A stretch of 64,000 nt of DNA from positions 62,001 through 126,000 of the forward strand of contig NZ_QJKC01000010.1 of NCBI RefSeq assembly GCF_003202035.1, given 5' to 3'. The notes beneath the pieces were generated by a model, which worked only from the letters and a program-made list of their open reading frames with translations, did not search any database and had not been told where the DNA came from. Every line of letters begins with the position of its first letter. Position 1 is the stretch's first letter. Of the stretch, positions 21,926-55,751 are shown piece by piece. A program made the position numbers and the translations under genes. Origin of the DNA: Aquitalea magnusonii (GTDB lineage: Bacteria; Pseudomonadota; Gammaproteobacteria; Burkholderiales; Chromobacteriaceae).

Positions 21926-21949
21926 GTCACGCGGCACCTTGACAAACAA

Positions 21950-22142
21950 CCCTCTCGCTTTCTGAAAGGAAAGCAAGGCTCCTTTCTTCAATTGGCAAGG
22001 CCAGGACGGGGGAAAGGCGAATAGATGGGAAGGCTGCGGAATCAGTGACTTAATCGAAAGGCCCGGCTTTGCCGGGTCCAGTACAATGGCTCCAAATAAC
22101 TTTGTCAGCAGCCTGAAAACCGGCCATCACGGCCGGTTTTTT
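21950..22142 (+). repeat. Dispersed intergenic element, copy A (about 190 bp)
   Basis: This sequence matches the reverse complement of 55322-55510 over almost its whole length. Shared blocks in order are CCCTCTCGCT, AAGGAAAGC, AGGCTCC, GAATAGATGG, AAGGCTGCG, a block from TCGAAAGGCCCGGC to GGGTCCAGTACAAT, CAAATA, and TTGTCAGCAGCCTGAAAA. Both copies end in a terminator hairpin. The core has a CCCGGC-TTT-GCCGGG hairpin. It lies between the convergent fsr and mliC genes. No transposase or clear target duplication is seen. It may be a REP/MITE-like repeat or a duplicated non-coding RNA. Confidence 0.75.
22116..22142. terminator. Terminator at the end of repeat copy A
   Basis: A 10-bp perfect stem (AAAACCGGCC with GGCCGGTTTT) around ATCAC, followed by two more T. 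It can act in both directions between the convergent fsr and mliC genes. Confidence 0.85.
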
Positions 22143-55321: not shown

Positions 55322-55512
55322 AATAAAAAACCGCCCGGCATCGGGCGGTTTTTCAGGCTGCTGACAACGATATTTGCTGCGATTGTACTGGACCCGGCAA
55401 AGCCGGGCCTTTCGACTAAATAACCGATTTCGCAGCCTTGCCATCTATTCCCTATCCCCTCACCCTTTCCCTGAAAGGGAGCCTCGCTTTCCTTGCAGGC
55501 AGCGAGAGGGAG
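55322..55512 (-). repeat. Dispersed intergenic element, copy B (about 190 bp)
   Basis: Reverse-complement counterpart of 21950-22142, with the same ordered blocks and a terminal hairpin. The hairpin stem differs (CCGCCCG here, CCGGCC in copy A) but stays fully paired. It lies between convergent yeiH and ybdD and is flanked on both sides by the same terminator hairpin in direct orientation, 192 bp apart. There is no coding capacity. Confidence 0.75.
55326..55353. terminator. Terminator after yeiH (end of repeat copy B)
   Basis: A 12-bp perfect stem (AAAAACCGCCCG with CGGGCGGTTTTT) around GCAT. It lies 16 bp past the yeiH stop. An identical hairpin recurs at 55518-55545. Confidence 0.88.
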
Positions 55513-55517
55513 AATCG

Positions 55518-55545
55518 AAAAACCGCCCGGCATCGGGCGGTTTTT
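55518..55545. terminator. Terminator after ybdD, identical to the yeiH terminator
   Basis: The same 28-bp hairpin sequence as 55326-55353, in the same orientation, 18 bp past the end of ybdD on the minus strand. Confidence 0.85.
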
Positions 55546-55562
55546 CTATGGCTGTCGGCTAA

Positions 55563-55751
55563 TCAGCACGGACACTTTTTCATCGACTTGCCACCATAAC
55601 GCTCGGACTGGCAGTGGGCGAAAAAGTCCTCGCGGCTCATCACCGGGGCATTGGGGCTGCAACGGCGGCGGCTGGCGACATACTTGTCGTAGTCTTTCAC
55701 CCCCACCATCAGCCGCGCCGCCTCGGTCAGCTGGCGCAATAACTCAGACAT
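55563..55751 (-). CDS. ybdD: YbdD/YjiX family small protein
   Basis: A 62-residue protein with LMVGVKDYDKYV and DFFAHCQSERYGGK, the pattern of the YbdD/YjiX family always found next to CstA-type transporters. It has four cysteines including a CSP and a terminal CPC, more than most relatives. Its start overlaps the cstA stop by 8 bp. Its role is thought to be accessory to CstA. Confidence 0.9.
   Translation of the reverse strand: MSELLRQLTEAARLMVGVKDYDKYVASRRRCSPNAPVMSREDFFAHCQSERYGGKSMKKCPC

What the first reader, a model, noticed from the sequence alone, without database searches (positions are those of the whole stretch)
21950..22142. Two-copy intergenic element of about 190 bp ending in a terminator with a re-paired stem
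The sequence at 21950-22142 matches the reverse complement of 55322-55510 in ordered blocks over its whole length, including an almost unbroken match through the CCCGGC-TTT-GCCGGG hairpin. The last hairpin differs in sequence between copies (CCGGCC versus CCGCCCG) yet stays fully paired in both. Paired changes hint at selection on RNA or DNA structure. Both copies sit between convergent genes. This could be a MITE/REP-like element that carries its own terminator, or a duplicated small RNA. I do not recognise it as a named family.
Basis: partly seen in the sequence, partly recalled or inferred. Interest (0 to 1): 0.78.

Follow-up and report, generated by a model that had tools for sequence, protein, structure and literature searches.

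The report
Mobile repeat that duplicates terminator hairpins
A small gene-less mobile DNA element, present in about 9 to 23 old copies in each freshwater Aquitalea genome, lands at stem-loop sequences (mostly transcription terminators) and leaves a full copy of the stem-loop on each side of itself, a way of inserting that I could not match to any described bacterial element.

Summary
The repeat is real but is not a two-copy element. The host genome (Aquitalea) holds 16-17 copies, every congeneric genome examined holds about 9-23, and relatives occur in Vogesella, Pseudogulbenkiania, Chitinibacteraceae and one more family. The element is about 140-185 bp and ends at ...TTTGTCAGCAGCCTG. The closing hairpin is not part of it. 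It is the host's own stem-loop at each site, usually an intrinsic terminator. In 76 of 122 copies the same locus-specific hairpin also stands at the 5' end. Orthologous empty sites carry one hairpin and filled sites two, including two independent insertions in opposite orientation at the same terminator. One insertion duplicated a stem of a glycine riboswitch, so the target is a hairpin rather than a terminator as such. The duplicated length (13-37 bp) follows the stem borders. The changed but still paired last stem is therefore a different target, not covariation. Genuine covariation does exist inside the element (8 of 15 pairs), so it is a structured RNA or single-stranded DNA. No transposase was found: IS1182-type, Y1 and reverse transcriptase genes are missing from all or most carriers. 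Best reading: a non-autonomous mobile element inserted by an unknown enzyme acting at both bases of a hairpin.

The parts
21938..22115 (+). Element copy A (body; 5' end degenerate, begins ..CTTGACAAACAACCC; 3' end ..CTTTGTCAGCAGCCTG)
   Evidence: Alignment of copies; empty orthologous sites in G001-G006 and G009
22116..22142 (.). Host terminator hairpin at copy A (AAAACCGGCCATCACGGCCGGTTTTTT), the insertion target, present alone in empty sites
   Evidence: empty sites carry the single terminator AAAACCGGCC(TTGATG/ATCACG)GCCGGTTTT; no upstream copy at this site
21957..21974 (+). Internal hairpin 1a GCTTTC/GAAAGC of copy A
   Evidence: Sequence; stem changes paired in L024 and L020
22031..22114 (+). 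3' domain of copy A closed by helix P1 (22031-22037 with 22108-22114)
   Evidence: P1 compensatory changes, e.g. AGGCTGC/GCAGCCT versus AGACTGC/GCAGTCT
22060..22079 (+). Internal hairpin P2 GGCCCGGC-TTT-GCCGGGTCC of copy A
   Evidence: Compensatory changes in 4 of 8 pairs
55354..55517 (-). Element copy B (5' end degenerate CGATTCT-CCCTC; 3' end CAGCAGCCTG)
   Evidence: empty in G001, G002, G005, G007, G009, G015; filled in G000, G003, G004, G006
55518..55546 (-). Upstream copy X1 of the duplicated host terminator hairpin (GAAAAACCGCCCGATGCCGGGCGGTTTTT)
   Evidence: 29/29 identical to X2; single in empty sites
55325..55353 (-). Downstream copy X2 of the duplicated host terminator hairpin

Best explanation
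It is a family of small non-autonomous mobile elements (MITE-like, 140-185 bp, no gene) that insert at DNA hairpins, usually the intrinsic terminators between genes. Shown: empty sites have one hairpin; filled sites have the element with, in about 60% of copies, a copy of the whole hairpin on each side; the borders of the duplication follow the stem borders; orientation is free; ends are TIR-like (CAGRYTGYTGACAAA); two internal helices covary. Inferred: an enzyme supplied in trans recognises the folded hairpin (cruciform or single-stranded), cuts the two strands at opposite bases of the hairpin, joins the element ends, and gap filling duplicates the hairpin, so that both flanking genes keep a terminator. 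Copies without the 5' hairpin probably lost it by deletion. The internal fold is probably needed for mobility, as the RNA or single-stranded DNA recognised by the machinery.
For: 16-17 copies in the genome and 9-21 matches reported in every congeneric genome, including one only 61% complete. Locus-specific hairpin duplicated at the element borders: 57/106 copies versus 1.2% in mismatched controls; 76/122 on the larger set. Borders of the duplication lie within 2 nt of the stem on the left in 68/75 and on the right in 62/75; 113/122 copies abut a hairpin versus 15% of control positions. Empty sites for three insertions, with an independent opposite-orientation insertion at the same terminator in G008 (L181), hairpin again duplicated. 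Insertion in a glycine riboswitch stem, stem duplicated. The same behaviour in distant families (L244, L299, L300, L246). 86 distinct sites. Covariation in P1/P2: 28 cells versus 5.8 in shuffles, 0/500.
Against: No enzyme was identified: reverse transcriptase, Y1 and IS1182-type transposase families are absent from most or all Aquitalea carriers, and no autonomous copy with the same end was found. About 40% of copies, including copy A in the window, lack the upstream hairpin. The 5' terminal repeat is far less conserved than the 3' one, which is unusual for a plain DNA transposon. No transposition has been observed.
Confidence: 0.78

Rival explanations
1. A retroelement-like (SINE-like) RNA: the structured RNA is copied by a reverse transcriptase at a nick beside the hairpin, giving a precise 3' end, variable 5' ends and a long target duplication.
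For: Precise 3' end and often degenerate or truncated 5' end; a 5'-truncated copy joined to the 3' end of another in G113 (L302); internal covariation; group IIC introns and diversity-generating retroelements are reverse-transcription elements known to use hairpin targets (own knowledge; the DGR paper PMC3240598 was seen as a title and abstract only).
Against: RVT_1 proteins are absent from 7 of 10 Aquitalea genomes; the one in the host genome lies beside an Rfam RT-15 RNA and is not shared with most relatives. TIR-like complementarity of the two ends is not expected.
Confidence: 0.15
2. Non-autonomous derivative of a known DDE insertion sequence, for example IS1182 family, that prefers palindromic targets.
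For: IS1182-type elements in G028, G031, G011 and G005 have ends of the type CAGRCTGTGTAAAAACG or GAGGCTGTGTGAAAACG, and some sit in palindromic targets; the element's right end reads CAGGCTGCTGACAAAGT. G005, with the most similar copies at different sites (96.7%), carries IS1182 genes.
Against: IS1182 genes are absent from G000-G004, G008 and G009, which carry many copies. The IS1182 copies inspected duplicate at most a few bases, not a hairpin. TIR similarity beyond CAGGCTG is weak.
Confidence: 0.2
3. A conserved small RNA or 3'-UTR regulatory RNA gene family spread by duplication and kept for function.
For: Strong internal conservation and covariation across families; a terminator lies directly downstream, so a discrete transcript is plausible.
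Against: Sites are polymorphic between species of one genus, insertion occurs in both orientations at one site, and there are 86 sites; no Rfam match.
Confidence: 0.1

Closest known systems
Bacterial MITEs and small dispersed repeats (ERIC, Correia, RUP/BOX/SPRITE, QMITE)
   Same: Short, gene-less, intergenic, multi-copy, TIR-like ends, empty sites, fold into stable stems
   Different: To my knowledge known ones duplicate a few bases (for example TA); here the whole 13-37 bp target hairpin is duplicated and insertion is tied to hairpins. The MITE review searched here (PMC10969869, text search) showed no such case.
Insertion sequences that target REP palindromes (ISPsy8, ISRm22, IS621)
   Same: Palindromic extragenic DNA is the target
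   Different: They break the palindrome near its axis with 3-6 bp repeats in the cases reported (PMC1525189) and recognise a given REP sequence; here any hairpin serves and is duplicated intact
Group IIC introns
   Same: Insert at intrinsic terminator hairpins (own knowledge)
   Different: No intron domain V or reverse transcriptase in the element, and no hairpin duplication is known to me for them
CRISPR spacer integration / casposase-type integration
   Same: Attack at the two ends of a (often palindromic) repeat duplicates the whole repeat (own knowledge)
   Different: No Cas1-type enzyme tested or linked; here the inserted element is a fixed repeat and the target is variable

Membership tests
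MITE (non-autonomous DNA transposon) | Multiple copies, no coding capacity, empty orthologous sites | tested here: met
MITE (non-autonomous DNA transposon) | Terminal inverted repeats | tested here: inconclusive
   Ends CAGATTGTTGACAAA / reverse complement CAGGCTGCTGACAAA agree at 12 of 15 positions, but the 5' end is degenerate in many copies
MITE (non-autonomous DNA transposon) | Target site duplication | tested here: met
   76/122 copies, but of variable hairpin length rather than a fixed length
MITE (non-autonomous DNA transposon) | Related autonomous insertion sequence with the same ends | tested here: not met
   Not found with the 3' end motif in 349 genomes of the order or in own and related genomes; the 5' end motif was not searched
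REP/REPIN with RAYT | Y1 transposase (PF01797) in the genome | tested here: not met
   0 of 10 Aquitalea genomes
IS1182-derived element | IS1182 transposase (PF13751) in carriers, same ends | tested here: not met
   Absent from 7 of 10 Aquitalea; ends only partly alike
Group IIC intron or other reverse-transcribed element | Reverse transcriptase in carriers | tested here: not met
   Absent from 7 of 10 Aquitalea
Known RNA family | Match to an Rfam model | tested here: not met
   None at gathering score over the window; only chance-level matches for the element
Structured RNA/ssDNA | Compensatory changes in helices | tested here: met
   8 of 15 pairs, 0/500 shuffles reach the count; RNAalifold on the full-length mixed alignment gave no usable consensus

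The most novel reading that the evidence does not exclude
A new class of mobile element in which a structured RNA or single-stranded DNA, not a sequence-reading transposase, finds and duplicates hairpins: insertion happens at the base of any hairpin, the whole hairpin is copied, and the RNA made from the element ends at the captured terminator, so the host signal becomes part of the mobile RNA.
Probability: 0.2. Interest if true: 0.9.

Novelty: new variant of a known kind. Interest (0 to 1): 0.7.

Why it matters
It shows a safe-landing strategy not matched to any described element: by targeting hairpins and copying the whole hairpin, the element sits between genes without leaving either gene unterminated. 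It predicts an enzyme that senses DNA hairpins without regard to sequence and cuts at both bases, which would matter both for understanding integration and as a tool. It also explains paired flanking terminators in these genomes that would otherwise look like RNA covariation.

Tried and rejected
Covariation of the last hairpin: rejected, it is the target. Known RNA family: none. Plasmid, phage or viral carriers: none. RAYT, IS1182 and reverse transcriptase as general partner: not supported. An autonomous copy sharing the 3' end: the isolated end matches inspected in non-carrier genomes look like chance hits, most of them apparently in coding sequence. RNAalifold on the mixed full-length alignment gave a poor, misleading fold, so helices were tested on the 3' domain only. 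Mutual information on full-length Aquitalea copies supported one pair clearly (hairpin 1b, 96% paired), most of the rest being noise. IS110 bridge RNA was considered and dropped without a test, because targets share no sequence. Literature searches found no hairpin-duplicating element; the library lacks most subscription journals.

Full report
What was reported and what is there. It is not a two-copy element: blastn in the host genome gives 16 copies at E < 1e-13 and one more diverged copy (L024), spread over many contigs. A 171-base consensus finds 9-21 copies in each of nine other genomes of the genus (about 20 candidates were scored per genome; one of the nine is only 61% complete) and up to 23 in other genera. 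A pattern scan of named genomes places the genus as Aquitalea and adds Vogesella, Pseudogulbenkiania, Chitinibacter and pond Neisseriaceae MAGs. There is no match in plasmids, phages or viral contigs and none in Rfam.

Borders. Aligning the copies shows that similarity ends sharply at ..ACTTTGTCAGCAGCCTG on the right and, where intact, begins at CAGATTGTTGACAAAC on the left. The hairpin after the right end is different at every locus. In 57 of 106 copies the same hairpin stands directly before the left end (ungapped score of at least 14), against 1.2% when left and right flanks of different copies are paired at random. On 122 distinct copies, 113 abut a hairpin within 12 nt of the right end, against 15% of random positions in the same loci, and 76 show the duplication (score of at least 13). 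The duplicated stretch is 13-37 bp (median 23). Its left border is within 2 nt of the stem border in 68 of 75 and its right border in 62 of 75; duplicate length and hairpin length correlate (Spearman 0.49). About two thirds of the duplicated hairpins have a T-rich tail and look like intrinsic terminators (48 of 76).

Empty sites. For copy B, downstream of the gene ending at 55563, six relatives (L175, L176, L177, L182, L183, L184) have a single terminator and no element. G000, G003, G004 and G006 have the element with two terminators. G008 (L181) has an element in the opposite orientation at the same terminator, again with two hairpins, so it is an independent event. For copy A, seven relatives are empty and G000, G007 and G008 are filled; here no upstream hairpin is present and the left end is degenerate. 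A third site lies inside the second aptamer of a tandem glycine riboswitch (G000:C7:60135, L168). The element sits after a stem AGACAGCACGCGTTGTCG, which is repeated in diverged form as AGACAGCCCCTGCAGTCG after it (the two stems are identical, AGACAGCCCACGCTGTCG, in G005, L052), while relatives have a single short stem at that place. The target is therefore a hairpin, not specifically a terminator. The 122 copies represent 86 distinct sites by right flank.

The hairpin whose sequence changed yet stayed paired is the host target, which differs by locus. It is not evidence for covariation of the repeat.

Internal structure. Two helices in the 3' domain do covary. P1 pairs AGGCUGC with the terminal GCAGCCU, and P2 is GGCCCGGC-UUU-GCCGGG-U-CC. 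With diverged copies from Chitinibacteraceae and a further family included, 8 of 15 pairs show changes on both sides, 28 cells against 5.8 in shuffles (0 of 500), and 98.9% of cells are paired, against 48.5% or less when the partners are slid (a smaller set). These counts are of sequences, not independent events: some changes are shared by one lineage. In the hairpin 1b stem a closing pair varies as GC, TA and AT with 96% pairing. Single-sequence folds are more stable than shuffles (z -3.2 to -5.9). The alignment does not say whether RNA or single-stranded DNA is the folded form. P1 uses the terminal repeat itself.

Distribution and age. A covariance model of the 3' domain finds carriers in 11 of 349 genomes of the order, in three families, and in none of the other genomes sampled across the class. 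Distant carriers duplicate hairpins in the same way (L244, L251, L299, L300, L246). In the host genome the most similar pair of copies at different sites is 85% identical, so no recent jump is seen there; G005 has a pair at 96.7% over the last 150 nt.

Enzyme. None was found. Reverse transcriptase (PF00078) is absent from 7 of 10 Aquitalea genomes; the one in the host genome has an Rfam RT-15 RNA beside it. Y1 transposase (PF01797) is absent from all ten. IS1182-type transposase (PF13751) is absent from seven; copies in other genomes share up to the first seven bases of the end but do not duplicate hairpins. The right-end motif was searched in 349 genomes of the order: the matches inspected in genomes without the element look like chance hits, most apparently in coding sequence. 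Solo right ends next to hairpins exist (L137, L144, L139) and look like remnants.

Mechanism proposed. Shown: gain of an element at a hairpin with duplication of that hairpin; free orientation; constant right end. Inferred: an enzyme supplied in trans recognises the folded target, cuts the two strands at opposite bases of the hairpin, and repair duplicates it. The outcome resembles repeat duplication in CRISPR spacer integration (own knowledge), but no link to such an enzyme was tested. Loss of the left hairpin in about 40% of copies is most simply later deletion, although a reverse-transcription route with 5' truncation is not excluded.

Relation to known elements. It works like a MITE and meets the copy-number, non-coding and target-duplication criteria; the terminal repeats are imperfect and no autonomous partner was found. 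Insertion sequences aimed at REP palindromes break the palindrome and make 3-6 bp repeats (PMC1525189). A review of prokaryotic MITEs, searched for relevant terms, shows no hairpin-length duplication (PMC10969869). Group IIC introns target terminators (own knowledge) but are a different machinery. I therefore call it a new variant of a known kind, with the caveat that the library searched lacks most subscription journals.

Noticed in passing
L168 (G000:C7:60050-60700), also L052, L093, L240: The element sits inside the second aptamer of a tandem glycine riboswitch upstream of what looks like a serine dehydratase gene in several Aquitalea species; a natural test of whether the riboswitch tolerates it.
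   Followed up: partly
L200 (G000:C4:36975-37634): A reverse transcriptase gene with an Rfam RT-15 RNA just upstream; motif GLPIGNLSSQ resembles diversity-generating retroelements (own knowledge). Found in the host genome, not in most other Aquitalea genomes.
   Followed up: partly
L139 (G006:C27:176550-176599): One hairpin flanked on both sides by element right ends: a full element on one side and only a 16-base end on the other.
   Followed up: no
L302 (G113:C85): Two elements in tandem, the second lacking about 40 bases of its 5' end and joined directly to the 3' end of the first.
   Followed up: no
L148, L154, L161 (IS1182-type elements): IS1182-type insertion sequences flanked by inverted GTCCGCTATTGGCC-like sequences, as if inserted at the centre of a palindrome.
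   Followed up: partly
L034, L073, L099: Elements after different hairpins downstream of the same gene (looks like a fumarate hydratase) in different genera; recurrent insertion or old vertical inheritance.
   Followed up: no
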